From assembly GCA_021775755.1 (NCBI GenBank), contig JAJFHE010000023.1:1-64000 (forward strand): a DNA stretch of 64,000 bases, read 5' to 3'. The notes beneath the pieces are model-generated. The model did no database searches. It saw only the letters and a program-made list of their open reading frames with translations, and was not told where the DNA came from. This DNA is from Hyphomicrobiales bacterium (GTDB lineage Bacteria > Pseudomonadota > Alphaproteobacteria > Rhizobiales > JAJFHB01). Of the stretch, positions 2,282 through 62,264 are shown one piece after another. Within the stretch, counting starts at the first letter, position 1. The number at the start of each line of letters is the position of its first letter. Position numbers and translations under genes: made by a program.

Positions 2282-2633
2282 GTTCGTCCCTCACAACACT
2301 AGTCCCGCGATACCTTTTCACATTGCAGCGCTGCGTTTGCGAACCGCTCGCAGTTTATCCAATTAGCCAGATTAGCCACCCTTTGGGCTCCGGGTTGCCG
2401 TTCGCGGGTTAGCATTCACACCCGTACAGGGCAAGCCGTGACCGTTCGCAACAGTTCACCGCTGCTCACGGCATTTCGTTTAGCAGGATTAACAACTTTG
2501 GCAGGGGTACACCCTCCAATTCCGGGTTTTGGCGAGCCGTGCCGATACCGGCGAAATGGAGGGAAAACAGCGTCCGTTGGAACCCCAGTGGTATTTTCTC
2601 AATTTTCTGAAAATGCTAAGTCATTGAAAATAT
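2282..2633. other. 352-base gap between terminator and tRNA-Ala
   Basis: I see no gene here. The frame from 2438 ends inside the tRNA and has no ribosome site, so I reject it. The stretch lies at the 3' side of the tRNA, where island attachment sites would be. No second copy of the tRNA 3' end is visible within the window. Confidence 0.5.
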
Positions 2634-2709
<76 letters not shown>

Positions 2710-2813
2710 ACTTTATGTGCCGCCGCGTTGGGCCGCGGCGGTTGAACTTTTAGGGCGGGCAGACGCCTCGATCAAGGAAAACCTGATGCCGCGCGCCGCA
2801 CGACGCCCGGACG

Positions 2814-3260
2814 TCAGGTGTCTTCCTTGCCGCCACCGGCGACGCCGCCGATCAGACCGGTAACGTCGGATTCAGGGTCATCGTCATCGGTTTCAAGGAA
2901 CGTGTCATCTGGCGCGTCATCGTCCTCGACATCATCATCGCCGCCGAGGTCGACATCCTTGATGGCGGCAGTCTCATCGTCTTCGTCGTCGGCTTCGTCC
3001 GCCTCGACATCGGCCAGAGACACAATCTCGACGCCTTCGTCGGCCTTTTCCTCTTCCTTTTCCGGCTCGGCCGGTTTCTCAGCCGGCTTGGGCGCCGGCG
3101 CGGGCGCCGACGCGGGCGAGCGGTCCTTTGAGGGCAGCAGAGTTTCGGGAATGAACACAGCCTCGCACTTCGGACACGTCGCCGGGCTCTTGCCAAGATC
3201 GTAGAATCTTGCGCCGCAACTCGTGCAAGTGCGCTTGGTTCCAAGTTCCGGATGCACCAC
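2814..3260 (-). CDS. FYDLN acid-domain zinc-ribbon protein (TIGR02300 family)
   Basis: The 148-residue product starts with GTG at 3260 behind AGGAAGG. The N-terminal 40 residues hold two Cys pairs, CTSCGARFYDLG and CPKC, forming a probable zinc ribbon with the family signature FYDL. The rest is a low-complexity acidic tail: a Pro/Ala linker (PASAPAPAPKPAEKPAEPE), then Asp/Glu runs up to residue 140. This matches the alphaproteobacterial family of unknown function normally found beside aroA. It may bind RNA polymerase or nucleic acid, but that is only a guess. It is divergent from aroA. Confidence 0.9.
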   Translation of the reverse strand: MVHPELGTKRTCTSCGARFYDLGKSPATCPKCEAVFIPETLLPSKDRSPASAPAPAPKPAEKPAEPEKEEEKADEGVEIVSLADVEADEADDEDDETAAIKDVDLGGDDDVEDDDAPDDTFLETDDDDPESDVTGLIGGVAGGGKEDT

Positions 3261-3514
3261 GATTCACCTTCCTGCGGTTCAGAGAAATTCGCGCATCCCA
3301 TGCCATGACGCTCTAGCGCTGTCAAAGGCTAAAACACGAAGCCGAAATCCGGCTCCGGCCGGGCGCGCGCTATTGCGGAACGCCGCAAGCCCCCGAGCGG
3401 CGCCGTGACAGCCCAAAAGGGCTGTGCTAGGACCGCCCGGCTACTCCGCACGCCAAGGCGGCCTGTGCGGGGCAGCGCTTCCTGTTTCACCGCAAACCCC
3501 AGCAGAGTTCTGCA
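3261..3514. promoter_or_regulatory. Divergent FYDLN/aroA intergenic region with a strong hairpin
   Basis: The 254 bases must drive the FYDLN gene leftward and aroA rightward. At 3408-3425 there is a perfect hairpin, ACAGCCC-AAAA-GGGCTGT (7-bp stem, 4-base loop), followed by GCTAGG rather than a T-run, so it is not a simple terminator. It could be part of the aroA leader RNA or a protein site. No clear -35/-10 pair was identified. Confidence 0.4.
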
Positions 3515-4870
3515 TTGAGCGTTCACACCAAATCTCCCCTGACGGCGTGCCGCTCGCGGGGCCTTGCCGGTAATATCCGCGTACCGGGCGACAAGTCGAT
3601 TTCGCATCGCGCGCTGATCCTCGGGGCCTTAAGCGTTGGCGAGACGACAATCACGGGACTGCTTGAGGGCGATGATGTGCTTGCAACCGCCGACGCACTC
3701 AAGGCTCTTGGCGCCAGCATCGAGCGCGGCGATGACGGTACATGGCACGTCCACGGGACCGGGGTGGGCGGGTTCCAGGATCCCCGTGCCCCGCTCGATT
3801 TCGGCAATGCGGGCACCGGTGTGCGTCTCATGATGGGTGTTCTGGCAAGCCAGCCTGTAACTGCCCGGCTCACAGGAGACGCTTCGCTTTCAGGCCGGCC
3901 CATGGGGCGGGTGCTGGCGCCGCTTCAGCGAATGGGCGCCCAATGGCAGAGCGATGGCGAAACCGCCGACAGGCTGCCCGGCATTATGAAAGGCGCGGAA
4001 GCGCCGGTGCCGATCACCTATACGCTTCCCGTCGCATCGGCTCAGGTCAAAACGGCGATCCTGCTCGCCGGCCTCAATACGCCCGGCATCACCTCCGTCA
4101 TCGAGCCCAAGCCGACCCGCGATCACACAGAGCGCATGCTGAAAGGTTTTGGAGCCGATATCCGCTCGCAAACCCTGGAGCGCGGGGCCGTCCAGATCTC
4201 GGTCAAGGGACATGTGGAACTTTCGCCGCGGGCCGTGCAGGTGCCCGCCGATCCGAGCTCGGCGGCGTTTGCAATCGTTGCCGCGCTGATCACGCCAGAT
4301 TCTGAGCTGACGCTCTGCGATGTCATGCTCAACCCGACGCGCGACGGGCTTGTGAGAACGCTCATCGACATGGGCGCCGATATAAACTCCGTCAACCGGC
4401 GCGACGCGGGTGGTGAAGAGATTGCCGATCTCGTTGTGCGTTCAAGCAAACTGAGGGGTGTCGACGTGCCGCCCGAACGGGCGCCGTCGATGATTGACGA
4501 GTATCCCGTGCTCGCGGTTGCGGCGGCCTGTGCGGCGGGCACAACGCGCATGCGCGGGCTCGCCGAACTCAGGGTCAAGGAATCGGATCGGCTTGCCGCC
4601 GTCGCGACGGGACTTGCGGCGGCAGGCGTCGCCCACAGGATCGAAGGCGACGATCTCATTGTCGACGGCGGCACGGTGCCGGGCGGCGCAACAGTGGCTA
4701 CGCATATGGATCACCGTATCGCGATGGCCTTTCTGACCCTTGGACTGGCGGCTGAAAGTCCCATTACCGTCGACGATGCGACGATGATCGCCACAAGCTT
4801 TCCCGATTTCGAAACCTTGTTGCGGAACGCCGGCGCACAAATTTCCGCGGACCCGGAGGCGCGTTCATGA
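3515..4870 (+). CDS. aroA: 3-phosphoshikimate 1-carboxyvinyltransferase (EPSP synthase)
   Basis: The enzyme joins shikimate 3-phosphate and phosphoenolpyruvate to give EPSP, the sixth step of the shikimate pathway, in the cytoplasm. The product is 451 residues, the normal size. Visible signatures are [11 protein letters not shown] (substrate-binding Lys and Arg) near residue 25, [12 protein letters not shown] near residue 95, [10 protein letters not shown], and KESDRLAA near residue 350. The sequence resembles the class II (alphaproteobacterial, Agrobacterium CP4-like) enzymes more than E. coli AroA; this is inferred from motif context. The start is a TTG at 3515 without a strong ribosome site, so the true N-terminus is slightly uncertain. 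It overlaps cmk by ATGA. Confidence 0.97.
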
Positions 4871-5493
4871 TCATCGCCATCGACGGACCGGCGGCTTCGG
4901 GAAAAGGCACACTCGCACGGCGCATTGCGCAGAAGTTCGGCCTCACCTATCTCGATACCGGATCGCTCTACAGGGCGGTTGCCGCATCACTGCTTGCGGC
5001 GGGCGGCAATCCGGCGGATGAGGCGGCCGCCGCGGCGGCGGCGCGGGATGTCGTGCCCGGTTCGATCGATGAGGCAACCCTGCGCCGCGACGATATCGGT
5101 CAGGCCGCATCGGTGGTCGCCGCGCAACCCGCCGTCCGCCAGGCACTTCTCGATACACAGCGGCGCATCGCCCGCACCGGTTCCGGCGCGGTGCTCGACG
5201 GTCGTGACATCGGCACTGTGGTGTGTCCGGATGCCGATGTGAAACTCTTCGTTCAGGCCGAACCGGAGGTGCGCGCGGAGCGGCGGTACCGCGAACTCTC
5301 CGAGCGCGGACAGACCGCGAATTACGACAATGTGCTGCGTGATCTGCGAGAACGCGACGCGCGTGATCGCGAACGCGCGCAGGCGCCGTTGAAACCGGCC
5401 GATGATGCGCACTTGCTAGACACTTCGAAGTTGGATATAGAAGCGGCGTTTCGTGCGGCAGTCGATATCATCGAACGCCATAACGAAACCTAA
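4867..5493 (+). CDS. cmk: Cytidylate kinase
   Basis: The enzyme phosphorylates CMP and dCMP to the diphosphates using ATP. The 208-residue product begins with the P-loop [14 protein letters not shown] (residues 4-17), then [11 protein letters not shown] and [16 protein letters not shown], all standard for Cmk. Its ATG overlaps the aroA stop as ATGA, so the two are translationally coupled; aroA-cmk-rpsA is a widespread operon. Confidence 0.97.
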
Positions 5494-5684
5494 GGGTGGC
5501 AGCAAAGGATCTGCCCCATTTTCGCGTTCCGCAACGGTGTCTGCAAAATAGCCCCGCACGGAATTGGATACATGGAAAGCCCACAACCGGAATTCGTGCC
5601 GCCCGCGCAAGGGCCGCGCGCTCTTCGGCGTGGGACGTCCTGCGGACATTACCGTGGGCAAGCCTGATACTGTAGGTGGTTTAC
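5494..5684 (+). promoter_or_regulatory. rpsA leader region
   Basis: There are 191 bases between cmk and rpsA with no gene. The part just before rpsA is rich in short complementary stretches (for example GGACGTCC and GTCC-TGC-GGAC around 5634-5646) and could fold. S1 mRNA leaders are commonly targets of S1 autoregulation, so a structured leader is expected here, but I cannot prove a fold by eye. Confidence 0.35.
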
Positions 5685-7595
5685 ATGACAGAGCCCGCAA
5701 CGAGCTCACTCAATCCGACAACTGAAGATTTTGCCGCGCTCCTTGAAGAAACGATTGCCGGCGGCGAGGCCCTTGAAGGCACCGTGGTGGCCGGCACGAT
5801 CGTTTCGGTGGAAGCCGATTTCGCGATCATCGACGTGGGGCTCAAGACGGAAGGGCGTGTGTCGCTCAAAGAATTCCAGACCCCCGGTTCGGATGTCGAG
5901 CTTGGCGTCGGCGACGAGGTCGAAGTTTACCTCGAGCGCATCGAGAACGCGATGGGCGAAGCGGTCCTGAGCCGCGAGAAGGCCAGACGCGAAGAAAGCT
6001 GGGCACGCCTCGAGACCTCGTTTGAAGCAAATGAGCGCGTTGAAGGCATCATTTTCGGTCGCGTCAAGGGCGGCTTCACGGTTGACCTCGACGGCGCCGT
6101 GGCGTTTCTGCCGGGCAGTCAGGTCGATATCCGTCCGATCCGCGACGTCACACCTTTGATGAACATTCCGCAGCCCTTCCAGATCCTCAAGATGGACAAG
6201 CGGCGCGGTAACATTGTCGTCTCGCGCCGGGCAGTACTGGAAGAAACCCGCGCCGAGCAGCGCAGCGAACTGGTTCAAAATCTCACTGAAGGCCAGGTCG
6301 TCGAAGGCATGGTCAAAAATATTACCGACTATGGCGCGTTCGTTGACCTCGGCGGCATTGACGGCCTCCTGCACGTCACCGATATCGCGTGGCGTCGCGT
6401 CAACAATCCGAGCGACGTCCTCTCCATCGGCCAGACGGTCAACGTGCAGATCATCAAGATCAACCCGGAGACGCAGCGCATCAGCCTCGGCATGAAACAG
6501 CTCGAAGCCGATCCGTGGGATGGTGTGGAAGCGAAGTATCCGAAGAGCATGAAGGTCAAGGGCACCGTCACCAACATCACCGAATACGGTGCATTCGTGG
6601 AGCTCGAGGACGGTATCGAGGGCCTCGTGCACGTGTCGGAAATGAGCTGGACCAAGAAAAACCTCATGCCCGACAAGATCGTGTCGACCAGCCAGGAAGT
6701 GGAAGTCATGGTGCTTGACGTCGATCCGGTCAAGCGGCGTATTTCGCTCGGCCTCAAGCAATGCATGGACAATCCGTGGCTGAGCTTTGCCGACAAGTTC
6801 CCGGTCGGCACGCAGGTCGAAGGCGCCATCAAGAACATCACCGAATTCGGCCTGTTCATCGGTCTCGACGGCGAAGTGGACGGCATGGTTCACCTCTCCG
6901 ATCTCGACTGGAACCGACCCGGCGAAGAGGTGATCCAGGAGTACAAGAAGAGCGATGTCGTGAAAGCCCAGGTGCTTGAAGTCGACACCGAGAAAGAACT
7001 CATCAGCCTCGGCATTAAGCAGCTCGGCGGCGATCCGATGGAATCGCTTGGCGCAGTGCGCAAGGGCTCCGTAGTCACTTGTGAAGTCGTGTCGGTCAAG
7101 GACAACGGCCTGGAAGTCACCATCGGCGATACCGACATGGCGGCCTTCATTCGCCGCTCCGACCTCAGCCGTGACCGTTCCGAGCAGCGCCCGGAGCGAT
7201 TTGCCACCGGCGACAAGGTCGACGCCCGCGTTACGCAAATCGACAAGTCATCGCGCCGCGTCTCGGTTTCCATCAAAGCGCTTGAAATCGCAGAGGAAAA
7301 AGAGGCGGTTGCCCAGTACGGGTCGACCGATAGCGGCGCATCGCTTGGCGACATTCTCGGTGCTGCCCTGAAAAGTGCCCAGGGCGACGCGGAGCCGGAA
7401 GACGCAAATGCCGGCGACGACAGCGATGCCGGCGACGACAGTGATGCCGGCGACGAGAGCGATGCCGGCGACGAGAGCGATGCCGGTGACGAGAGCGATG
7501 CCGGCGACGAGAGCGATGCCGGTGACGGCGGCGATGCCGCTGGAGATGCCCCGTCCGGCGAGGAAGCCGAAGCGGGCGAGGACGACAAAGCCTGA
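5685..7595 (+). CDS. rpsA: 30S ribosomal protein S1 with extended acidic C-terminal repeat tail
   Basis: S1 binds mRNA on the small subunit and helps start translation. The 636-residue product holds six S1 (OB-fold) repeats between about residues 30 and 555; copies are recognisable by lines such as [19 protein letters not shown] and [22 protein letters not shown] 5685 is chosen over GTG 5676 because AGGTGG precedes it correctly. The tail is odd: after about residue 565 there are at least seven [12 protein letters not shown] hexapeptides from an 18-base tandem repeat, giving a highly acidic, presumably disordered end. Usual alphaproteobacterial S1 is about 560-570 residues, so the tail adds roughly 65. 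Confidence 0.97.
7407..7532 (+). repeat. 18-bp tandem repeat inside rpsA
   Basis: Seven in-phase units close to GATGCCGGCGACGAGAGC start at 7407, 7425, 7443, 7461, 7479, 7497 and 7515, with a degenerate unit after that. Differences are mostly single silent or Asp/Glu changes. The repeat length is a multiple of three, so copy-number change would keep the frame. Confidence 0.95.
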
Positions 7596-7648: not shown

Positions 7649-8620
7649 ATGGCGCTTGAAGCGGACATGCTGGCGGACAGGCGGCGAATGAAGCGCCGCG
7701 TTGGCCGCTGGCGTCTTCTTGCCCTGGCATTCGCGTTCATTGCGGTGGTCGGCATTGCGGTCAGCTACGTTGACGAACTTTCCCTGTTCCGGCTCGGCGA
7801 TCACATTGCGCGCGTGTCGGTGAGCGGCATCATTCTCGATGATCGCGAGCAGCAGAACCTGTTCGACAGCATCAAGGACGCCAAAGGCGCGAAAGCCGTC
7901 ATCCTTCATATCAACAGCCCGGGCGGCACGACGGCGGGCTCAGAAGCGCTGTTTGCCGCAATCCGCCGGCTGGCGACAGTCAAGCCGGTAGTGGCGGTGA
8001 TGGGCGATGTGGCGGCCTCGGGCGGTTACATCGCCGCGCTTGGCGCCGACCACATCGTGGCGCGCGGCAATTCGATCACCGGTTCCATCGGCGTGATTTT
8101 CCAATGGGCCAACTTCTCCCAGCTTTTGGAGAAGCTTGGCGTAGACGTCGAGCAGATCAAAAGCGATATCCTCAAGGCGGAGCCCAATCCATTTACGCCG
8201 ACGCCGCCGGAAGCACTTGAGGTGACGAGCGAAATGGTGCGCGACTCGCATGCCTGGTTCGTCGGCCTGGTGGCGGAGCGCCGGCCGTTCGATGCAGACC
8301 GTGCCGCGCAGCTTTCAGACGGGCGGGTATACACCGGACGCCAGGCGCTTGAGGCAAACCTAATAGACGCAATCGGCGGTGAACGTACAGCCGTTGCCTG
8401 GCTGCAGGAAACGCACGGGATTGCTGACACGCTGAAAGTCGTCGACTGGCGCCGCGACAGCATCGAACAACTCGGGCTCGGCGAACTTGCGATCGCCTGG
8501 ACGTTGCGCCAGGTGGGCCTTGCCGGTCTGGCTGACCTTATCGGTACGGGTGAAAAAATGTCGTCTCTAGAAAGACTTAGTCTTGACGGCCTGATATCGG
8601 TTTGGCACCCTGAGCCGTGA
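7649..8620 (+). CDS. sppA: Signal peptide peptidase SppA, short (36K) type
   Basis: This membrane serine protease (peptidase family S49) degrades leftover signal peptides. The 323-residue product has one membrane segment (about residues 22-40) and a single protease domain. The catalytic pair is visible: Ser124 in GDVAASGGYIAA and Lys176 in IKSDILKAEPNPF, 52 residues apart as in the Bacillus subtilis enzyme. INSPGGT (residues 89-93) forms the oxyanion region. It is a single-domain short form, unlike the 67K E. coli protein. It lies between rpsA and ihfB, a frequent order in this class. Confidence 0.93.
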   Translation: MALEADMLADRRRMKRRVGRWRLLALAFAFIAVVGIAVSYVDELSLFRLGDHIARVSVSGIILDDREQQNLFDSIKDAKGAKAVILHINSPGGTTAGSEALFAAIRRLATVKPVVAVMGDVAASGGYIAALGADHIVARGNSITGSIGVIFQWANFSQLLEKLGVDVEQIKSDILKAEPNPFTPTPPEALEVTSEMVRDSHAWFVGLVAERRPFDADRAAQLSDGRVYTGRQALEANLIDAIGGERTAVAWLQETHGIADTLKVVDWRRDSIEQLGLGELAIAWTLRQVGLAGLADLIGTGEKMSSLERLSLDGLISVWHPEP

Positions 8621-8665
8621 ATTCGGCCGGCTTTGGGCTAATCGAGGTCGGGGGGAGCGGCAAAT

Positions 8666-8959
8666 ATGATAAAATCAGAACTCATTCAGAAGATCTCGGA
8701 AGAGAATCCACATCTTTACCAGCGCGACGTTGAGCGCATCATTAACACCGTATTTGGAGAAATTGGCGGAGCGCTGGCGCGTGGCGACCGCGTGGAACTG
8801 CGCGGCTTCGGTGCGTTTTCCGTAAAGGAGCGCCCGGCACGGACGGGCCGTAATCCGCGTACCGGCGAGCCCGTATTCGTCAACGCGAAACGGGTGCCGT
8901 TTTTCAAGACGGGCAAGGAACTGCGCGAGCGCCTCAACGACAACGGCGACGACGACTGA
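8666..8959 (+). CDS. ihfB: Integration host factor subunit beta
   Basis: This subunit pairs with IHF-alpha to bend DNA at specific sites, assisting recombination, replication and sigma-54 transcription. The 97-residue product has the HU/IHF fold: helices in residues 1-40, then [26 protein letters not shown] forming the beta-arm with the intercalating Pro in NPRTG, and a C-terminal helix [11 protein letters not shown] Gly/Asp tail (NDNGDDD) ends it. The ribosome site GGGGGAG precedes the ATG. The IHF-beta assignment rests on the position behind rpsA and on the KSELIQKI start. Confidence 0.93.
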
Positions 8960-9051
8960 TTTTGGAGCGGTCGGCGGGCAGCTCATTTGAACTCGCACCC
9001 GCCGCTTAAGCACAACAGTTCGCTAGGGCGGAATCGCAAGGGTATTCGACA

Positions 9052-9384
9052 GTGAAGCGATTGATACACTGGCTGTTCGGGTTGCCGATTGCGCTTGTTG
9101 TTATCGCCATCTCGGTTGCCAACCGTGATGCGGTGAAATTCTCCGCCGATCCGTTCTCCACGGCCGAACCGTTCTTTGCCATTGAGTTGCCGTTGTTCGT
9201 TCTGTTACTGGCGGCAGGCTTTGTCGGGCTCGTTTTCGGTGGTGTCGCATCGTGGCTGTCGCAGGGAAAATGGCGCCGTGCGGCACGGCAGGCCCGAGCC
9301 GATACGATGCGCGCACGGCAGGACCACGAAACCCTCAAACGGCGTCTCGCCTCGCAAAGCGAAGCACTGCCGCCACCTAACTGA
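9052..9384 (+). CDS. LapA family (DUF1049) inner-membrane protein
   Basis: The 110-residue product has two membrane segments (about residues 5-22 and 42-65) joined by a short loop, then a basic cytoplasmic helix (KWRRAARQARADTMRARQDHETLKRRL). That is the LapA/LapB-partner layout: in E. coli, LapA helps assemble lipopolysaccharide with LapB. The start is GTG at 9052. It follows ihfB, as in many Proteobacteria. No lapB lies nearby, so any role in lipopolysaccharide control is inference. Confidence 0.8.
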   Translation: MKRLIHWLFGLPIALVVIAISVANRDAVKFSADPFSTAEPFFAIELPLFVLLLAAGFVGLVFGGVASWLSQGKWRRAARQARADTMRARQDHETLKRRLASQSEALPPPN

Positions 9385-9394
9385 GGCCTTCCTT

Positions 9395-10288
9395 ATGACC
9401 GCACAGCGCCCACAGCTGGAAGTGTCGCAAGCCACGCCGGTGCGTTGTTCGTTTGTCCGGCGGCTTGCCGCGGCCGCCGTTTTTGCGACCCCCCTTCTAC
9501 TGGGAGCCGGAACGGCGTTGCATGCGGGCGACAGCGACCGGGTGGTCGCCATCGGTGTTACGCCCGAAGGGGTAAGCTGTGTGCTCGGCGGATCGATCGG
9601 AGGTGAAATCGTCGCCGCCAGCCGGCTGGTCGACGTGATGACCCATGGCCAGGACTACACGCTTGTCGGTCTTGACGGCCCCCTTGCCACCGCCGTAGCG
9701 GTGGGAGGCGCGCGCGCCGTCCCTCCCGACGCCGATTGCGAGGATCAGTTCGAACAGGAACTCTCAATCGACGAGCGCGACACCGGCATCATGCAGACCG
9801 CAGTGCTTGGCACTCAAGACGTGATCGCGGAATACGTTGCTCCGGTGACGCATATTACCGGTGCCGAGCTTGAGGACCTGCGCCTCGATATCCGCGTCTA
9901 TCTGGACGAGAGCGGTTTCATCTATTCCGGCGTCGAACTGTCGCAAGCCATGCGTTTCGATGCCAACGGTGACGGCAAGCCCGAAATTCTGATCAATGCC
10001 ATCAACTCGCAACGCGGCAGCCAGCAACGCGGCGAGTATGCCCTCATTCTTCTGAAAGACGGCGCCAGTGGTCAGTTCAGGTCCCTGGCGGAGGAATTCA
10101 CGGATGAAACCAGCGATTTTCCGAGCCTATTGTGGGAGAACACGGTGGTCTCCGTTATCGACCTCGACGGCAACGGGAAGATGGAAATTGTTCTTTACGG
10201 GACATTTTTCTACGGCGATGGCTGGGAAGTGATAGAAATCGGCGAAACCAAAGGCACCGCCGTGTTGGGCTGCGGTTGCAGCGGGTAG
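9395..10288 (+). CDS. Exported protein with FG-GAP/calcium-loop-like repeats, unknown function
   Basis: The 297-residue product has a long basic N-region and a hydrophobic signal segment (about residues 28-46, ending near ALHAG). It has four Cys (SCVLGG, DCEDQ and a C-terminal CGCSG). Two loops, DANGDGKPEI and DLDGNGKMEI, have the Asp-x-Asn/Asp-Gly-x-Gly spacing of FG-GAP/VCBS or EF-hand-like calcium loops. I do not know the family. The start at 9395 lies 10 bases after lapA, and a longer frame would overlap lapA wrongly. The product is probably periplasmic or surface-located. Its lapA/pyrF neighbours say little about function. Confidence 0.75.
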   Translation: MTAQRPQLEVSQATPVRCSFVRRLAAAAVFATPLLLGAGTALHAGDSDRVVAIGVTPEGVSCVLGGSIGGEIVAASRLVDVMTHGQDYTLVGLDGPLATAVAVGGARAVPPDADCEDQFEQELSIDERDTGIMQTAVLGTQDVIAEYVAPVTHITGAELEDLRLDIRVYLDESGFIYSGVELSQAMRFDANGDGKPEILINAINSQRGSQQRGEYALILLKDGASGQFRSLAEEFTDETSDFPSLLWENTVVSVIDLDGNGKMEIVLYGTFFYGDGWEVIEIGETKGTAVLGCGCSG

Positions 10289-10393
10289 AACGACTTGCGT
10301 TCCGGGCTCCACACGGGCATCTGATTGCTCTATAACCCGCCCGGGCATTCCGAAGATTGGAAGCCGACCCTTACTCCTCTGGAACGGATGGCG

Positions 10394-11125
10394 ATGGCGT
10401 TTGACAATCCGATATTCTGCGCGCTGGACACGACCGACTTGGAATGGGCAGTGGCACTGGCGCACGAGCTGCACGGCCACGTCGGCGGCGTAAAGATCGG
10501 CATGGAGTTTTTTTATGCGCACGGCCGCGAGGGATATGCACGCGTTGCAGCGTCGGGGCAGCCTGTGTTTCTTGATCTGAAACTGCACGACATCCCGAAC
10601 ACGGTTGCCGGCGGGCTCGGCGCGCTTGCCTCGCTCGCCCCGGCCGTCATCAACGTGCACGCACAAGGCGGCAGTGCCATGATGCGCGCCGCCGCAGATA
10701 CTCTGCGGGGTGGCTCTGGCGCAACAAAGGTTATCGCCGTAACCCTGCTCACGAGCCTTGATGCGGACGACCTGAACGCGCTCGGTTACCGGGCCGATGG
10801 CAACGATGCGACGCAGGCGCATGTGCAAAACCTGGCGCAACTTGCACGCACGGCCGGCCTCGATGGCGTCGTTTGCTCAAGCCATGACCTCAAAGCCATC
10901 AGGCAGGCCTGCGGGCCGGATTTCCTCACCGTAGTGCCGGGCATCAGGCCGGCATCGGTCGACGCCAGCGACCAGAAACGCATCGCCACTCCGGCCTGGG
11001 CGCGCAAGAACGGCGCCGATGTTCTGGTGATCGGTCGGCCGATCACGCGAGCCGACGATCCGGTCGCGGCGGCACGTGCGATCAACGCCGAACTCACCGC
11101 TGCGGAAGCGGCATCGCGGGTTTGA
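10394..11125 (+). CDS. pyrF: Orotidine 5'-phosphate decarboxylase
   Basis: The enzyme decarboxylates OMP to UMP, the last step of pyrimidine synthesis. The 243-residue TIM-barrel product carries the catalytic Asp-Lys-x-x-Asp array in LDLKLHDIPNTV, plus VKIGMEFF near the N-terminus and VVPGIRP near the phosphate site. ATG 10394 (MAFDNPIF) is chosen with GGAA ten bases upstream; ATG 10388 would add MA. It is separated from trpF by one base. Confidence 0.96.
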   Translation: MAFDNPIFCALDTTDLEWAVALAHELHGHVGGVKIGMEFFYAHGREGYARVAASGQPVFLDLKLHDIPNTVAGGLGALASLAPAVINVHAQGGSAMMRAAADTLRGGSGATKVIAVTLLTSLDADDLNALGYRADGNDATQAHVQNLAQLARTAGLDGVVCSSHDLKAIRQACGPDFLTVVPGIRPASVDASDQKRIATPAWARKNGADVLVIGRPITRADDPVAAARAINAELTAAEAASRV

Positions 11126-11126
11126 T

Positions 11127-11774
11127 ATGACCGACGTAAAGATTTGCGGGCTTTCTGAGCGCGAGACCCTGATGACGGCGCTGGACTGCGGCGCTGCCTA
11201 TACTGGCTTTATGTTCTACGGCCCAAGCCCCCGCAACATAGACCTCGACACCGCCCGCGAACTCGCAGAAATAGTCGAAGACCGGGCACAGAAGGTTGCC
11301 GTAACGGTCGATGCCAGCGACCACCTTCTCGACAGCATCGCCGCCGCCCTGCGGCCGGATTTTGTGCAGGCACACGGTTCTGAAACCGCACGGCGGATCG
11401 AGGAAATTTCGCGCAAATTCGGTGTCGGCGTGATTAAGGCCATCAAGGTTCGCGGCGAAGAAGATGTTCAGCTTGCCGACGAGTACCGCGATTGCGCTGA
11501 TCTGCTGCTGTTTGATTCGAAGGCAGCGCCCGGTGATTCCATGGCGCTTCCAGGCGGCAACGGCGTCGCGTTTGACTGGACGCTGCTCAAGGATCACGCT
11601 TCGAAAACGCCGTTCATGCTGTCCGGCGGCCTTGATGCCGGCAATGTCGCGAAAGCCATTGCGGTCACCGGTGCGCCGGTCGTGGATGTTTCGTCCGGCG
11701 TCGAAACGGCACCGGGCGCGAAGGATTCACGACTTATCGCAAATTTCATTGAGGCCGCAAGGCGTGAAGGTTAG
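11127..11774 (+). CDS. trpF: Phosphoribosylanthranilate isomerase
   Basis: The enzyme opens phosphoribosylanthranilate to CdRP in tryptophan synthesis. The 215-residue single-domain TIM barrel starts VKICGL (catalytic Cys near residue 7), has the acid FVQAHG segment, and ends with the phosphate-binding [12 protein letters not shown] and [10 protein letters not shown]. The start ATG is one base behind the pyrF stop. It is separate from trpC, as is usual in this class, and leads straight into trpBA. Confidence 0.96.
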
Positions 11775-56812: not shown

Positions 56813-57616
56813 ATGCGACACATATCCGAAATACCGGTTGCCGACCTGCGTGCCGCGCGATTCGTGCTGTGCGATATCGACGACACGCTGACCCATGAAG
56901 GCCGCCTGCCGGCCGCCGCCTATGGCGGCCTTGAAGCACTGCGCGATGCAGGTCTTGCGATCATTCCGATTACGGGCCGGCCGGCTGGATGGTGCGATCA
57001 CATTGCACGCATGTGGCCCGTGGAAGGTGTGGTCGGGGAAAACGGTGCGTTCTACTTCCGTTACGACGAAACACAACGGATTATGGAACGCGTTTACGCG
57101 CGCGATGCCGGTCAAAGGCGGAAGGACGGCGCGAAGCTCGCGGAGCTCGGCGAACTCATTCTGACGGAGGTTCCCGGTTGCGCGATATCGGCGGATCAAG
57201 CCTACCGCGAAATCGATCTGGCGATAGATTTTTCAGAAGACGTGCCAGCATTACCGCGCGAAGCCGTGACACGGATCAAGCAGCTGTTCGAGGAAAACGG
57301 CGCAACGGCAAAAATCAGCTCAATTCATGTCAATGGCTGGTATGGCGACCATGACAAACTCTTCATGGCGCGGCGGTTCCTGAACGACGTGTTTTCGTTC
57401 GATGCGGAAGCAAGTCCGCGCGAGGTGATCTTTCTTGGCGACTCGCCGAATGACGAACCTATGTTTGCGTTCTTCCCGAATGCCATCGGCGTTTCCAATA
57501 TCAAGGCGTTTGCCGACCGGCTCGCATCGCCACCCGCCTGGGTCACATCGGAGCCCGGCGGCCACGGCTTTTCGGAGTTCGCAAGCCTCATGCTCAAGGC
57601 GAGAAACGCTCAATAG
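56813..57616 (+). CDS. HAD-superfamily (Cof/sugar-phosphatase type) hydrolase
   Basis: The 267-residue product has the HAD motif I LCDIDDTLT (Asp21 and Asp23), motif II IIPITGRP, and motif IV GDSPNDEPMF, with a C2-type cap between. Mannosyl-3-phosphoglycerate and sucrose-phosphate phosphatases share this layout, but the substrate is not decided. GGGGGCG precedes ATG 56813, and the gene starts 8 bases after the hybrid kinase stop, so they are likely one transcript. Its end overlaps the convergent small gene by seven bases. Confidence 0.88.
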   Translation: MRHISEIPVADLRAARFVLCDIDDTLTHEGRLPAAAYGGLEALRDAGLAIIPITGRPAGWCDHIARMWPVEGVVGENGAFYFRYDETQRIMERVYARDAGQRRKDGAKLAELGELILTEVPGCAISADQAYREIDLAIDFSEDVPALPREAVTRIKQLFEENGATAKISSIHVNGWYGDHDKLFMARRFLNDVFSFDAEASPREVIFLGDSPNDEPMFAFFPNAIGVSNIKAFADRLASPPAWVTSEPGGHGFSEFASLMLKARNAQ

Positions 57617-57780
57617 TCGAAGCCGTCCGCAGCCGCATCCATGTCGTCTGGATCGTCGAACATCAAACTTTCGGCAGCATCGGCAGCCTCGATGCGGCCC
57701 AGCATGTGAAGCACCTCGTGCAGCTCAAAGCTCACGTTGTCGTCGATCTCCAAGAGATGTTCGTCAGTGGTGATGTACAT
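57610..57780 (-). CDS. Small acidic protein, 56 residues
   Basis: The frame starts ATG 57780 behind GGGAG and stops TGA 57610-57612. The product, beginning MYITTDEHLLEIDD, is strongly acidic, with an amphipathic middle (ELHEVLHMLGRIEAADAAES) and an acidic end (FDDPDDMDAA then DGFDY). No hydrophobic segment or Cys occurs. It is tail to tail with the HAD gene with a seven-base overlap. I recognise no family; such short acidic proteins are sometimes anti-sigma, antitoxin or metal/phosphate-handling partners, which is speculation. Confidence 0.6.
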   Translation of the reverse strand: MYITTDEHLLEIDDNVSFELHEVLHMLGRIEAADAAESLMFDDPDDMDAAADGFDY

Positions 57781-57919
57781 CGTCGTCTCCCGTGGCTGCC
57801 CGCGCCGGCTTTACGAATGCCTTTGCGGGGACTGTGGGAGGCAGATTGACAGAAGCGCCCTGAACCGGCGCGGAACGGGCCATTCATATCCGGTTCACCG
57901 GGAAAAAGGGAACTGGCCG

Positions 57920-58495
57920 TCAGCGCGGCAGCAGCTCGAAGGCCGGTTCAAACCCGCCGAGCGGCACCGGAACGGTGACGGGCTTTTGCATAAGGTTCTT
58001 GAACGTCACTGCGAGCGTTGCGCCCGAGGCCATATGCCCGACAAATGTGTCATTGATGACCATCGTCGCGTAACAGGCACGCTCATCGCAGGTTTCGATT
58101 TCAAAAAGAGCCTGAGTTCCCTCATCGACACTCAGGCCGACGCCGGAGGGGAGATGAATTTTGTGCGGCAGGGCAAGCAGCATGTGAACGGTCGCGGTAT
58201 CGGCGTCGCGTTGCACAACGACGGAAACGATCCTCTGACCGGTTTCGCGCACCGACACATACTGCGAGATCTGGCAGCTGTGTTCGGAACCATCGGCAGC
58301 GCGCTCGCAGTTGAACGCCCAGGCAGGGTCCTGACGCACGATCTCCGTCGTCGCCTCGGTGTCCGATTGTGCCGCGGGCGCCGGGCGGCCCGTGAAACCC
58401 ACAGCAAAGACAACGCAGCTCACCGCCACGGCGGTTGCCGTCGCAACACTCATCACTTCCCGCAGCGAGATACTTCGTCTCGTGGCCCGGTTCAT
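57920..58495 (-). CDS. Invasion-associated locus B (IalB) family exported protein
   Basis: The 191-residue product has a signal anchor (about residues 13-36) and an IalB domain: WAFNCERAADGSEHSCQISQ with the paired Cys, then LLALPHKIHLPSGVGLSVDEG, ETCDERACYATMVI and the second Cys pair. IalB helps Bartonella enter erythrocytes; in free-living relatives the family is common and its role unclear. ATG 58495 has GAGGG upstream; the GTG at 58516 is less likely. Confidence 0.9.
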   Translation of the reverse strand: MNRATRRSISLREVMSVATATAVAVSCVVFAVGFTGRPAPAAQSDTEATTEIVRQDPAWAFNCERAADGSEHSCQISQYVSVRETGQRIVSVVVQRDADTATVHMLLALPHKIHLPSGVGLSVDEGTQALFEIETCDERACYATMVINDTFVGHMASGATLAVTFKNLMQKPVTVPVPLGGFEPAFELLPR

Positions 58496-58636
58496 CTGGC
58501 CTGCCCTCTTACTCACGCACGCATTGTGACGCCGTTCGGTGAATCGTCCGTAAAGGCGTACGCAACACCCTACACACGAACAACATGGCGTGAAAAAGAC
58601 GCGAAAAAGTACCGGGGACCGGAGCAGGGCTGCCGG

Positions 58637-59557
58637 TTACTGGCTTTCGGTGTAGTAGTAGTTCGCTTTGCGGCCAAACAGGACCTGGCGCACCAACCGG
58701 CGCGAGCGTTCCGACCGCCGCAGCGGCTCAATGACGAACCGGGCCGCATCGTAAGCGGCAACCTTGATGCCGTCGAGCACAGGTACCGACCCGGGCGCGC
58801 GTTGCGGCATGCCAAGCTTGCGCAACGTGGCATTCATGAAACGGATCTTGTTGAGGCGCTTGACGCTGGGTGTCTTCCAGGTCACCGCGATGGAGACTGT
58901 GTAGCGCTCTCCGGTACGCACCCAGTGCGGCCACATATAGGGTAAAAACACAGCGTCGCCTTCCGCCATTTCGAAGACTTCGGCGCGGCGTTCGAACTCA
59001 GCGCGGTATTCCTGATTGCGGTGTTTGCTGGGCGAGATTTCCAGATCTTCCTCGCTGACCAGATCGCGGTCCTCGTTTTCGAAGACATGCAGATACTTGT
59101 CGCCTCTGATCTGCAGCAGCACATTCTGTTCAGCATCGACATGGAACGGGGTCGTCGAATTTGCCGACGAGACGAAAATGAATCCCTGAAAATCCTCGAG
59201 CGACTCCGCATCCGGTCCCGCGGCGCGGGCCACATCCGCGAGGCAGCTCTTGAGGAATTGCTGGTATTCGGGATCGTGCTCGACGTTTTTGATCACCATC
59301 CACGCTTGACAATCCTCAATGCGCCGGATGGTTTCTTCGATTGAAAGGTCGATGCCCGGCACCGTGCTGGGATCCTGGTTCGGCTCAACATCACCCGAGC
59401 AGTACTCGATCCGGTCCCTGTCCATCGAGCGGGCAAGCTCGATCAGGCGCGGCAGCGCAAACAGCGGATGGCCGGAGAGGTCGTGACGGGCGCGGAACGG
59501 CGCATTGGGAAACTTATCGCGCATCTGATTTTCCGGCATGGTGATTAAGGCGGTCAT
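58637..59557 (-). CDS. JmjC/cupin-like oxygenase-fold protein
   Basis: The 306-residue product has a cupin-like core with FHVDAEQNVLLQIRGDKY, where His and Asp would form the usual HxD iron site, and a later PHWVRTGERYTVSIAV with the third His. This fits the cupin_4/JmjC hydroxylase group; the substrate is unknown. Its ATG overlaps the stop of the FemAB-like gene (ATGA). It is the last gene of the three-gene cassette with the flippase. Confidence 0.82.
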   Translation of the reverse strand: MTALITMPENQMRDKFPNAPFRARHDLSGHPLFALPRLIELARSMDRDRIEYCSGDVEPNQDPSTVPGIDLSIEETIRRIEDCQAWMVIKNVEHDPEYQQFLKSCLADVARAAGPDAESLEDFQGFIFVSSANSTTPFHVDAEQNVLLQIRGDKYLHVFENEDRDLVSEEDLEISPSKHRNQEYRAEFERRAEVFEMAEGDAVFLPYMWPHWVRTGERYTVSIAVTWKTPSVKRLNKIRFMNATLRKLGMPQRAPGSVPVLDGIKVAAYDAARFVIEPLRRSERSRRLVRQVLFGRKANYYYTESQ

Positions 59558-60864
59558 TTTGAGCCTCCCTTGAGCCTGTTCTTGATGTTGATGTAGTAAC
59601 GTTTGGCCAGCGCCCGGGCGCGGCGCCACGCGGTTTCATGCGCGACGATGGCGTTGAACATCCAGCGCGGGGTCGTGCGCGCGGCAATTACTCTGTCGTG
59701 AAACGAAACCCCGTCGCGCCAGATATGGTTGATCATCGGGTGATCGGGCAGCGCGCACGAATCTATCGTCTCGACCCCACCTTCGGCGGTCAGGTGCTCC
59801 ATCACGTCAAATATGATCAGGGAGCCGGGCGAAAACCGCGCGCAGGCTTCGTCATAGGTAATCTTGGCAAGCCAGACGGTTTTGCCGCGCCGCACGGCAA
59901 ACAGCATCGCGACGGGCTCACCGTTCAGCAGCAGCCGCCAGAACAGGAGATCGCCGGCCGCATCCTGCCCGCGCAAAGCCTCATCGAAGAAGCGATGCCA
60001 TTCCGGTTTGTTCGCGATCGCGGTGCCCGAGCGGCCCTTCCAGCCGGACTTCTCCAGCGCATAGAACTGTGAAGTCCAATCCTCAAGCGGCGATCCGCTC
60101 GCACGGCTTTCGAATGTCAGCTCACCGGTTTCCGCAAGGCGCGTGCGCAGTCGCCGGAACTCCTTGCGCCGCTTGCGCGACAGGTGCGCCGTCAGATACG
60201 CCTCCACCGGCCCGTCGATCTTGTAAGCGGCGCGCTCATAGGTCGAGAGAACAGCGTCGGCGCGCCCCGAGCGCCCGACGACCCGGTTGAACGCATCGGC
60301 GACGGCCCCGCTGAGCGGCAGCTCCGGCAGGAAATATGCTCTTGCCCCCTGATCTTCCAAATAGTCCAGATAGGTTTCAATGGCCTCATCCGCGTGGGTA
60401 CGGTGCAGGAGCGGCGTACCGAGAAAACAGAAAAGATGTTGCCACCGCGAGGCGATGCGCAACGGCAGGCCGTGCAGCATGGCGTTCTGCCGGTGCAGGA
60501 AGACGCCGATCAGGACTCGGTTCCCAGCGACGCCGGCTTCACTGTTGTGACGCCAGACGAAACAGGCTTCCACCGCAGGCCCACCGGTCATGAGGTTGTT
60601 CATCGCCGCAACCGCCCACACAGGTTCGCTGGTGGGCGCCGGTTCCAGCGCGGCGCCGGCGAGCGCATGCCAGTCCGTGAGCAGGGCGTGAAAGTCGGCG
60701 GCGTCACGGACCGTTTCAACGCTTGCCGCCGTAGCGCTGGGCGTTGCGGGTTGCGCGTATAACAACGGTCTTGCGGCGGCAGCCCTCCCGGAGACGGCTA
60801 CCCTGTCGTGAACCATCGAGGCGAGGCCCCCCGAATGTGCCGTTTCATGATCTGTGCGGCGCAT
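59554..60864 (-). CDS. FemAB/GNAT-fold (BioF2-like) acyltransferase
   Basis: The 436-residue product has a variable first half and a GNAT-like core including HLSRKRRKEFRRLRTRL, KSGWKGRSGTAI, FWRLLLNGEPVAMLF and WLAKITYDEACARFSPG, as in the FemAB/Acetyltransf_6 group that adds acyl or aminoacyl groups to surface sugars. It starts on the last base of the flippase stop (TAATG) and overlaps the cupin gene by ATGA, so the three genes are translationally coupled. Confidence 0.82.
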   Translation of the reverse strand: MRRTDHETAHSGGLASMVHDRVAVSGRAAAARPLLYAQPATPSATAASVETVRDAADFHALLTDWHALAGAALEPAPTSEPVWAVAAMNNLMTGGPAVEACFVWRHNSEAGVAGNRVLIGVFLHRQNAMLHGLPLRIASRWQHLFCFLGTPLLHRTHADEAIETYLDYLEDQGARAYFLPELPLSGAVADAFNRVVGRSGRADAVLSTYERAAYKIDGPVEAYLTAHLSRKRRKEFRRLRTRLAETGELTFESRASGSPLEDWTSQFYALEKSGWKGRSGTAIANKPEWHRFFDEALRGQDAAGDLLFWRLLLNGEPVAMLFAVRRGKTVWLAKITYDEACARFSPGSLIIFDVMEHLTAEGGVETIDSCALPDHPMINHIWRDGVSFHDRVIAARTTPRWMFNAIVAHETAWRRARALAKRYYINIKNRLKGGSK

Positions 60865-62264
60865 TATCCCGCTCCACCTTCCGCATCGCTGCCGGGTCCG
60901 GGCCTCAGTTCGGGCGCGCCGAAAACGAACGCGTGCAACCCGAGCCGCTGACGAATGATGCAGTAGAGGAAAAGCGATTCAAGAATGATCGCACCGAGCG
61001 TTGCATATGCCGCGCCCAGCGGGCCAAACCGGGGAATGAGGGCGAAGTTCAAGACAACATTGGCGGCAAGCGCAATGCTCATGACCACGGCGCATATTTT
61101 CTGCTGGCCGAGCACGGTGAGGAGGGTTTCCGCGGGCCCGAGCGACGCGCGAACGATCAACCCGAGGGCGAACACGAACATGATCGGGTAGCCGGCCGTG
61201 AACTCCGGGCCAAACAGCCACAACAGCGGAATGCCCATCGCCAGAATAGCGAAGCTGGCGGCAAGTGAAGGCCAAAAGCACCACTGTACGGCCTGGCGCA
61301 TATGAGCGGAAAGATCACCGTGGCGGCCGGCACTGAAATACTCCGCAAACCGGCTGCTGAATGCCGCGGTAACCGCAAAGTGCACAAAGGCCACAAGGCT
61401 CGTCGTCTTGATCGCGGCATAGTAGACCGCGATGTCCTGCGGCGTGACGAATGTGTTGAGGATCAAAATATCGACATGCTGCATGAGCTGATAAAAGCCG
61501 TGCATCAACAATATCGGTACCGATACCGCAAACCACAGCGGCACATCGTACTCACGGCGGCCAGACCCTGCCCGTTCATCGATGCGTTTGTTCAACATGA
61601 TGAACTGCGTCACCGCGGTTACGTAGGTGGACGCAAGCGCTGCTCCCAGCGCGGTCACCGCGTTCGCTTCAAATCCCGCCCACATGGCACCGGCCAGAAA
61701 CACCAGCAACAGCAGCGGGCGCTGGATATACGGCGGAATGAGTGCCAGATCGATCCAGGATTCCGCCCGCGAAATACCGTCCTGCACATCAACGAGCGCA
61801 TAGCCCGGCAGACAGAAGAAGACGAGCACGAGCGGGACCAGATAGTAATCTTCGATTGTGCCGTGCAAGGCCACGGTCGTAACCGCGCCGACGGCAAGAA
61901 CAAGCGTTGCGACAGCCACGGAAATGAGGCGACTGCCCAGCACAAACCCCCTGAACAAAGGCCATTTTCCGGCTTCGCGGTATTCGGGCAAAAAACGCAG
62001 CACGGAGGTATTGAGCCCGATGGTCGAGAGGCCGCCGAGTAGCAGCACGAACACCCATACATAGGCGAAAATGCCAAATTCAAAGGCGCCGATCCAGCGC
62101 GCCAGGAGTATTTGCGAAAGATAGGCAAGCGCCGCGCTGGCAATGCGAATGCCGAACGCGAACAGCGCACCGCGTTGCGCCTGTGCGCCATGGCCTGTGC
62201 CACGCAGCTTTTCAGCGATCGAACCAAGCTGCGACAGCGCGAGTGACTGTCTTGCTACAGACAT
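60864..62264 (-). CDS. Oligosaccharide flippase (Wzx/MVF-like)
   Basis: The 466-residue protein has 12-14 membrane segments, starting near residue 33 (GALFAFGIRIASAALAYLSQ), with the polysaccharide-biosynthesis-family layout (LLARWIGAFEFGIFAYVWV, IILNTFVTPQDIAVYY-like segment, LGQQKICAVVMS). It probably flips a lipid-linked sugar unit across the inner membrane. No glycosyltransferase or polymerase is in the window. It heads the FemAB-like and cupin genes. Confidence 0.88.
   Translation of the reverse strand: MSVARQSLALSQLGSIAEKLRGTGHGAQAQRGALFAFGIRIASAALAYLSQILLARWIGAFEFGIFAYVWVFVLLLGGLSTIGLNTSVLRFLPEYREAGKWPLFRGFVLGSRLISVAVATLVLAVGAVTTVALHGTIEDYYLVPLVLVFFCLPGYALVDVQDGISRAESWIDLALIPPYIQRPLLLLVFLAGAMWAGFEANAVTALGAALASTYVTAVTQFIMLNKRIDERAGSGRREYDVPLWFAVSVPILLMHGFYQLMQHVDILILNTFVTPQDIAVYYAAIKTTSLVAFVHFAVTAAFSSRFAEYFSAGRHGDLSAHMRQAVQWCFWPSLAASFAILAMGIPLLWLFGPEFTAGYPIMFVFALGLIVRASLGPAETLLTVLGQQKICAVVMSIALAANVVLNFALIPRFGPLGAAYATLGAIILESLFLYCIIRQRLGLHAFVFGAPELRPGPGSDAEGGAG

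What the first reader, a model, noticed from the sequence alone, without database searches (positions are those of the whole stretch)
58637..62264. Flippase, FemAB-like and JmjC-cupin cassette with overlapping genes
The three genes overlap by 1-4 bases, which signals a joint process. A sugar flippase together with an acyl/aminoacyl transferase and an oxygenase-fold protein suggests export of a modified surface glycan or lipid, with hydroxylation as an unusual step. No glycosyltransferases are present, so the cassette may act on a carrier made elsewhere.
Basis: inference. Interest (0 to 1): 0.6.

Follow-up and report, generated by a model that had tools for sequence, protein, structure and literature searches.

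The report
Surface-sugar decorating and flipping gene trio
Three overlapping bacterial genes appear to decorate, hydroxylate and flip sugar building blocks of a sticky surface polysaccharide whose other genes lie elsewhere in the genome, and related bacteria keep these genes side by side or even fused.

Summary
In detail: a MOP/Wzx-type flippase, a tandem GNAT and a JmjC (Cupin_8) oxygenase lie on the minus strand with 1- and 4-base overlaps. They are not chance neighbours. In 150 genomes of the order, 26 of 26 close cupin orthologues have the GNAT directly upstream and 18 of 26 also the flippase. All 80 best named loci (Hyphomicrobiales where named to order) have GNAT then cupin; 38 have the trio. 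Nine carry flippase and GNAT in one open frame, one GNAT and cupin. In two genomes of another order the trio sits inside a Wzx/Wzy exopolysaccharide locus; the matching locus of this genome, on another contig, has no flippase. Of 94 genomes with the flippase, 93 also have that locus's deacetylase (not corrected for ancestry).

Best reading: a relocated "decorate, hydroxylate, flip" module for lipid-linked repeat units of a holdfast/UPP-like polysaccharide. The GNAT model resembles tRNA-dependent FemX and MprF domains more than CoA-type tandem GNATs, and the flippase–GNAT fusion copies MprF's layout, so aminoacylation is possible but unproven. Against: many GNAT–cupin pairs have no flippase beside them, many flippase–GNAT pairs no cupin, and no activity was tested. 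New variant of a known kind.

The parts
60864..62264 (-). MOP-superfamily polysaccharide flippase (Wzx-like), 466 aa, 12 hydropathy peaks
   Evidence: Polysacc_synt 30.6 bits (cut-off 28.2), MurJ 30.7 (27.4), MatE 30.9 (24.9); far below the MurJ equivalog cut-off (32.5 vs 235.55 bits); simple hydropathy count
59554..60864 (-). Tandem-GNAT (Acetyltransf_6) N-acyl/aminoacyl transferase, FemX-like fold, 436 aa, residues 1-44 of low confidence in the model
   Evidence: PF13480 2.9e-25; AlphaFold pLDDT 87.4; FemX Z 20.4, FemA 19.7, L-PGS 18.1, CoA-type tandem GNATs 14.8 or less
58637..59557 (-). JmjC/Cupin_8 Fe(II)/2-oxoglutarate oxygenase, 306 aa, no hydrophobic segment found
   Evidence: Cupin_8 2.9e-13, JmjC_2 2.2e-6; H139, D141, K154 and H211 identical in 23 hand-picked sequences; pLDDT 89.7, NO66/YcfD Z 17.8, JMJD5 17.2, FIH 15.8
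60864..60866 (-). TAATG junction, 1-base overlap flippase/GNAT
59554..59557 (-). ATGA junction, 4-base overlap GNAT/cupin; the same overlap at 62 of 80 named loci

Best explanation
The trio is the decoration-and-flipping module of a Wzx/Wzy-dependent, holdfast/UPP-like exopolysaccharide. (1) Sugars are built on undecaprenyl-PP by the WcaJ-type initiator and glycosyltransferases of the locus on contig C11 and elsewhere. (2) On the cytosolic face the FemX/HfsK-like GNAT puts an acyl or aminoacyl group on an amine of the lipid-linked repeat unit. (3) The JmjC oxygenase hydroxylates that group, or the sugar, using Fe(II), 2-oxoglutarate and O2. (4) The flippase, coupled to the GNAT, moves the finished unit to the periplasm. 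(5) Wzy, Wzc and Wza polymerise and export it. Shown from sequence: gene order, adjacency, fusions, intact oxygenase residues, predicted folds, the EPS locus without a recognised flippase, and co-occurrence. Inferred: substrate, acyl donor, order of steps 2 and 3, and every activity.
For: 26 of 26 close cupins in 150 genomes have GNAT directly upstream and 18 of 26 the full trio; 61 flippase-GNAT pairs all have the flippase first. 80 of 80 named loci have GNAT-cupin, 38 the trio; 9 flippase-GNAT open frames and 1 GNAT-cupin (rechecked). In G121 and G225 the trio lies in an EPS locus between deacetylase and Wzc. The G000 locus on C11 shares flanking genes (70/50/79% identity), deacetylase 49%, Wzc 35%, Wza 49% and Wzy 37%; the only two Polysacc_synt proteins found in G000 are the window's and one on C54. 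Flippase in 94 of 150 genomes, 93 with that deacetylase; GNAT 78 of 79; cupin 26 of 26; control gene 16 of 24, p 0.45. HxD...K...H kept in 23 sequences. Folds.
Against: 8 of 26 sampled cupins lack an adjacent flippase (two of these, G317 and G295, are cut by a contig end), as do 34 named loci with at least 3.5 kb upstream. 43 of 61 flippase-GNAT pairs have no cupin near, and 57 of 118 flippase hits and 31 of 92 GNAT hits are not in such a pair. G000 has a second flippase that could serve the EPS locus. In 3 of 20 regions the deacetylase stood without other EPS genes, so it is an imperfect marker, and only 1 of 20 held a flippase hit, at 26%: inside this order the trio was not seen in the EPS locus. 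Co-occurrence is not corrected for ancestry. HfsK could not be compared. No activity was tested.
Confidence: 0.6

Rival explanations
1. The trio decorates another envelope polymer (LPS, capsule or peptidoglycan precursor): a MurJ-like flippase with a FemX-like branching enzyme.
For: FemX and FemA are the closest folds of the GNAT; MurJ and Polysacc_synt models match the flippase about equally.
Against: MurJ equivalog score 32.5 against a cut-off of 235.55. In G121/G225 the trio is inside a Wza/Wzc/Wzy exopolysaccharide locus. The flippase goes with the EPS deacetylase in 93 of 94 genomes.
Confidence: 0.12
2. GNAT-cupin is a separate two-gene system modifying a protein, tRNA or small molecule; the flippase is a loosely attached neighbour.
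For: 34 named loci with enough upstream sequence have GNAT-cupin and no adjacent flippase. The best solved relatives of the cupin by profile are TYW5, JMJD5 and FIH, which act on tRNA or protein (recalled). The NCBIfam BspF ('crotonyl transferase') model matches the GNAT at 115 bits, cut-off 775.
Against: Flippase-GNAT is a common unit by itself (61 pairs, one order only) and is one open frame in nine loci. GNAT goes with the EPS deacetylase in 78 of 79 genomes.
Confidence: 0.15
3. A variant within the best explanation: the GNAT is an ordinary acyl-CoA-dependent N-acyltransferase and the cupin hydroxylates the acyl chain or a sugar carbon; nothing is tRNA-dependent.
For: HfsK was proposed to acylate holdfast polysaccharide and belongs to the GNAT family (PMC5362036, Discussion); most GNATs use CoA (general knowledge). 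Foldseek's own ranking puts a CoA-binding tandem GNAT (2wpw) ninth among tRNA-dependent enzymes.
Against: Z-scores favour tRNA-dependent FemX, Sba18/Sbb17 and MprF (16.4-20.4) over CoA-type tandem GNATs (14.8 or less). The CoA-loop motif [QR]xxGx[GA] (recalled) is absent from the window GNAT, and in 26 aligned sequences it occurs at most 4 times at one position, none of them in the loop at residues 338-346.
Confidence: 0.4

Closest known systems
HfsK of Caulobacter crescentus (holdfast GNAT, c-di-GMP effector)
   Same: Tandem GNAT whose closest solved structure is FemX, linked to EPS modification, short C-terminal extension with functional arginines, membrane partner proposed but unknown (PMC5362036: passages, Discussion). 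The window family also ends in a basic stretch with R417 identical in 26 of 26 aligned sequences.
   Different: That paper says HfsK's neighbours 'gave no hints' of function. Here the GNAT is coupled to a flippase and a JmjC oxygenase.
MprF (lysyl/alanyl-phosphatidylglycerol synthase-flippase)
   Same: Flippase followed by a tandem-GNAT transferase in one protein in nine relatives; the GNAT fold matches L-PGS, A-PGS and MprF (Z 16.4-18.1). MprF's layout and activity are recalled.
   Different: The flippase belongs to the MOP (Polysacc_synt/MurJ/MatE) group. Substrate most likely undecaprenyl-linked glycan, not phosphatidylglycerol. Extra JmjC partner.
UPP / holdfast Wzx/Wzy pathways of Alphaproteobacteria
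   Same: WcaJ/HfsE-type initiator, Wza, Wzc, Wzy and deacetylase on C11. A 2014 review calls the upp cluster incomplete, with Wzx and Wzy not yet identified (PMC4018554, passages).
   Different: The C11 locus carries a Wzy, unlike the upp cluster as described in that review; orthology to upp was not settled. The 2022 paper that may name the UPP flippase is not held.
JmjC oxygenases: NO66, YcfD, JMJD5, TYW5, FIH
   Same: Fold and HxD...K...H active-site pattern.
   Different: Genomic partner is a flippase-GNAT pair; the 20 closest of 23 aligned sequences share an -ANY- tail (the other three were cut before the tail).

Membership tests
JmjC Fe(II)/2OG oxygenase (cupin) | Pfam match above cut-off | tested here: met
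   Cupin_8 50.7 bits (27.4), JmjC_2 27.7 (22); JmjC PF02373 itself is below its cut-off, 14.9 (24)
JmjC Fe(II)/2OG oxygenase (cupin) | HxD...H metal triad and 2OG-binding lysine | tested here: met
   H139, D141, H211 and K154 identical in 23 sequences; the FIH spacing of 15 from H to K is recalled
JmjC Fe(II)/2OG oxygenase (cupin) | JmjC double-stranded beta-helix fold | tested here: met
   NO66 Z 17.8 (rmsd 3.4, 207 residues), YcfD Z 17.8 (3.3, 189)
JmjC Fe(II)/2OG oxygenase (cupin) | 2OG-dependent hydroxylation | not testable with these tools
   needs an enzyme assay
FemABX aminoacyl transferases | Two GNAT domains in the FemX arrangement | tested here: met
   FemX Z 20.4, rmsd 5.3 over 311 residues
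FemABX aminoacyl transferases | Sequence membership in a Fem family | tested here: not met
   Only PF13480 in Pfam at E<=1; no Fem chain in the profile search of PDB sequences at E<=1
FemABX aminoacyl transferases | Aminoacyl-tRNA donor | not testable with these tools
   fold ranking only
HfsK | Sequence orthology to CC3689 | not tested
   no Caulobacter sequence was fetched; the HfsE search of 230 genomes gave none over the cut-off
Wzx/MOP flippase | Polysacc_synt match, about 12 TM | tested here: met
   30.6 bits vs 28.2; 12 peaks in a simple hydropathy count
MurJ | MurJ equivalog score | tested here: not met
   32.5 vs 235.55 bits
MprF | LPG-synthase-type flippase domain | tested here: not met
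   the window flippase matches only MurJ, MatE and Polysacc_synt in Pfam at E<=1
BspF (NCBIfam NF047385) | Curated model score | tested here: not met
   115 vs 775 bits for the window GNAT; 157-175 for three relatives

The most novel reading that the evidence does not exclude
An 'MprF for polysaccharides': the GNAT loads an amino acid from aminoacyl-tRNA onto undecaprenyl-linked sugar units, the JmjC enzyme hydroxylates that amino acid, and a MOP flippase docked or fused to the GNAT flips it, giving a surface adhesin that carries hydroxylated amino acids. In this genome the cupin paralogue lies two bases behind a second leucyl/phenylalanyl-tRNA-transferase homologue, beside another GNAT, as if the same chemistry recurs.
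Probability: 0.22. Interest if true: 0.85.

Novelty: new variant of a known kind. Interest (0 to 1): 0.62.

Why it matters
It offers a concrete candidate for the flippase that the C11-type exopolysaccharide loci of Hyphomicrobiales lack. It gives HfsK-type GNATs, whose substrate, donor and membrane partner were left open (PMC5362036), a physical partner in the form of natural flippase–GNAT fusions. It also adds an oxygen-dependent hydroxylation step to polysaccharide assembly, which could tie surface properties to oxygen or iron supply. All three points can be tested by gene deletions in free-living genera such as Methylopila, Hansschlegelia or Kaistia.

Tried and rejected
A first own-genome search with an oxygenase family (PF13640) was not pertinent: it found two genes elsewhere. 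Peptidoglycan/MurJ reading: MurJ equivalog score far too low. Plasmid carriage: the cupin matched 2 of 72,556 plasmid records, both Paraburkholderia largidicola at 30%; phages were not searched. Wider relatives: 9 of 240 genomes of the class matched at E<=1e-10, the window's own included; outside the order the best were 5.6e-56, 1.5e-55 and 6.4e-42. The 58 weak cupin matches of the order sample are paralogues: 1 lies near a detected GNAT and 2 near a detected flippase. Looking for a Caulobacter-type hfs cluster with the HfsE model gave no genome over the cut-off among 230; in the best one (G063, 608 bits of 750) no relative of the trio was seen among the ORFs called in 20 kb. Flippase against PDB sequences: nothing at E<=1. 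GNAT profile against PDB sequences: one chance-level hit. The CoA-motif count: 14 of 26 sequences have the motif somewhere, at most 4 at one position.

Literature: cupin+GNAT+flippase+exopolysaccharide+cluster (1 paper), cupin+holdfast, flippase/GNAT/fusion/Wzx/acyltransferase, JmjC+exopolysaccharide+acyltransferase+bacterial and FemAB/flippase/exopolysaccharide/Rhizobiales (13 papers with three terms, 10 listed). No title or shown start of an abstract describes this trio. Of the 10 listed, three were opened in passages or sections (PMC11340318, PMC4018554, PMC10787603). The library lacks most subscription papers, so this absence is weak evidence.

Selections: A1 holds the window and 22 hand-picked loci. 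A2 holds the window and 25 of the 52 GNATs listed. Twenty of the 26 cupin loci were fetched, and 20 of 111 deacetylase genomes. My ORF caller keeps the longest frames and missed some genes, so synteny was counted with tblastn. The single GNAT-cupin fusion (L149) could be a sequencing frameshift.
Full report
WHAT IS THERE. The minus strand of 62264-58637 reads flippase, GNAT, cupin with overlaps of one (TAATG) and four (ATGA) bases. Pfam gives MurJ/MatE/Polysacc_synt at 1.7-2.9e-7, Acetyltransf_6 at 2.9e-25, and Cupin_8 at 2.9e-13 with JmjC_2 at 2.2e-6. The flippase scores 32.5 bits on the MurJ equivalog model (cut-off 235.55), so it is not a typical MurJ; the GNAT scores 115 on the BspF model (cut-off 775). 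Neighbours: an IalB-family protein (57920-58516, -) and an HAD-IIB phosphatase (56813-57616, +). The organism belongs with the Hyphomicrobiales: genome G277, of the same family, has a contig (9606 bases, same match position) that is named locus L070, a Hyphomicrobiales bin.

CONSERVATION. In 150 genomes of the order the cupin search gave 84 matches in 71 genomes; 26, one per genome, are close (E<=1e-80). All 26 have the GNAT immediately upstream on the same strand and 18 also the flippase upstream of it. Of the other eight, G317 and G295 are cut by a contig end. Flippase-GNAT pairs (flippase E<=1e-30, GNAT E<=1e-20, within 2.5 kb) number 61 in 57 genomes, all with the flippase first, none reversed; 43 have no cupin near, and 57 of 118 flippase hits and 31 of 92 GNAT hits are unpaired. 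GNAT lies directly upstream of the cupin in 80 of 80 and the flippase upstream of it in 38; 34 others have at least 3.5 kb upstream and no such flippase, and 8 are too short. Nine loci (four Methylopila, four Hansschlegelia, Chelatococcus sambhunathii S14) carry flippase and GNAT in one open frame; Bradyrhizobium lablabi carries GNAT and cupin in one of 713 aa. So the GNAT is the hub: it pairs with the flippase, the oxygenase, or both.

LINK TO A POLYSACCHARIDE. In genomes G121 and G225 (one genus, another order of the class) the trio (37, 34 and 34% identical to the window's) is part of a block GNAT-cupin-GNAT-flippase-GNAT-cupin between a polysaccharide deacetylase and Wzc, followed by Wza, a glycosyltransferase and Wzy. 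The window's genome has one Poly_export protein, on contig C11, inside a locus with deacetylase, Wzc, Wza, a WcaJ-type initiator (TIGR03023, 493.9 bits, cut-off 410.75) and Wzy. The two loci correspond: flanking genes 70, 50 and 79% identical, deacetylase 49%, Wza 49%, Wzy 37%, Wzc 35%. In the window's genome the block between deacetylase and Wzc is missing; the locus has no relative of the trio's flippase, and the only Polysacc_synt proteins found in the genome are the window's and one on C54. Relatives of the other block members are on C57 and C73. Of 20 deacetylase regions chosen by hand from 111 genomes with a match, 16 show Wzc and Wza beside it, one (L173) other EPS genes only, and three (L163, L164, L168) no other EPS gene; 10 have a GNAT paralogue beside the deacetylase, and one (L178) a flippase hit at 26%. 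Other flippase families would not have been seen by that search.

CO-OCCURRENCE. Across the 150 genomes the flippase occurs in 94, 93 of them with the deacetylase (E<=1e-40, 111 genomes); GNAT 78 of 79; cupin 26 of 26. A control, the HAD phosphatase next to the trio, shows 16 of 24 (Fisher p 0.45), but it is rarer than the test genes and so a weak control. None of this is corrected for ancestry.

CHEMISTRY. Cupin: 23 aligned sequences keep H139, D141, K154 and H211, the pattern of Fe(II)/2OG oxygenases (the FIH spacing is recalled). The model (pLDDT 89.7) matches NO66, YcfD, JMJD5, TYW5 and FIH at Z 15-18, and by profile TYW5 at 1.2e-7, then JMJD5 and FIH. GNAT: the model (pLDDT 87.4; residues 1-44 below 50) matches FemX 20.4, FemA 19.7, the tRNA-dependent peptide synthases Sba18/Sbb17 18.9-19.2, L-PGS/A-PGS/MprF 16.4-18.1 and an uncharacterised Bacteroides protein 16.9; CoA-type tandem GNATs start at 14.8. 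Rows within one Z are tied. Foldseek's own order is less clear: FemX first, but a CoA-binding tandem GNAT (2wpw) ninth. The window GNAT has no [QR]xxGx[GA] motif (recalled as the CoA loop); 14 of 26 sequences have it somewhere, at most 4 at one position and none in the loop at residues 338-346. Its C-terminus is basic with R417 identical in 26 of 26, recalling the arginine-bearing extension of HfsK (PMC5362036). The flippase has 12 hydropathy peaks, so both ends would face the same side, taken as the cytosol. The cupin has no such peak; the GNAT has one (306-324) that is beta strand in the model. No signal-peptide predictor was run. In the nine fusions the GNAT hangs on the flippase's C-terminus, as in MprF.

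A HINT TOWARDS AMINO ACIDS. On C73 the cupin paralogue follows, after two bases, a leucyl/phenylalanyl-tRNA-protein transferase homologue of 321 aa (PF03588 1.8e-57; TIGR00667 143.9 bits, cut-off 143.55), divergent from another Acetyltransf_6 gene. It is the second such gene in the genome; the other, on C18, lies in a frame of 231 aa and is 38% identical. It was found in no other locus fetched by then, so it is a single observation.

KNOWN WORK. HfsK is a FemX-like c-di-GMP effector proposed to acylate holdfast polysaccharide, with a putative membrane partner (PMC5362036, passages and Discussion). The upp cluster was called incomplete, without a known Wzx or Wzy, in 2014 (PMC4018554, passages). 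A conserved holdfast-like pathway is reported for Rhizobiales, Caulobacterales and Roseobacterales (PMC11340318, passages and section 11). UPP genes in Bradyrhizobium: PMC12727192 (passages). A review of the Brucella envelope was seen in passages and does not name this trio there (PMC10787603). The 2022 UPP paper that may identify a flippase is not held, so the missing Wzx is stated for 2014 only.

VERDICT. A conserved arrangement of known protein kinds, not described in the listings of the searches, most likely decorating and flipping EPS repeat units. Function is inferred from context; the acyl donor and the hydroxylation target are open.

Noticed in passing
L151 (G000:C73:78000-97900) 7883-11446: A second Leu/Phe-tRNA-protein transferase homologue (321 aa) two bases upstream of a JmjC cupin paralogue and divergent from an Acetyltransf_6 gene; suggests that tRNA-dependent transfer and hydroxylation may be paired again.
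   Followed up: partly
L154 (G000:C11:37000-56900) 2396-5774: A PhyH-type dioxygenase and a B12-binding radical SAM protein sit beside the EPS deacetylase; possibly more tailoring enzymes of the same polymer.
   Followed up: no
L093 3338-6001 and L149 4786-6924: The NCBIfam BspF model (a secretion-effector name) matches GNATs that are fused to a flippase or a JmjC oxygenase in Methylopila and Bradyrhizobium (161 and 157 bits, below the cut-off of 775), so the wider family's common role may be glycan decoration.
   Followed up: no
57737-58945 (+): A 402-aa open frame antisense to the cupin and IalB genes; probably a high-GC artefact, but it hid the cupin from my length-based ORF calls.
   Followed up: partly
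57920-58516 (-): IalB-family protein downstream of the trio; also near the trio in the same-family genome G277 (L050, 43% identity), where the HAD phosphatase homologue is on the same contig too.
   Followed up: partly
L012/L013: Closely related genomes G121 and G225 carry three Acetyltransf_6-type genes and two JmjC cupins inside one EPS locus, a rich set of tailoring enzymes for one polymer.
   Followed up: partly
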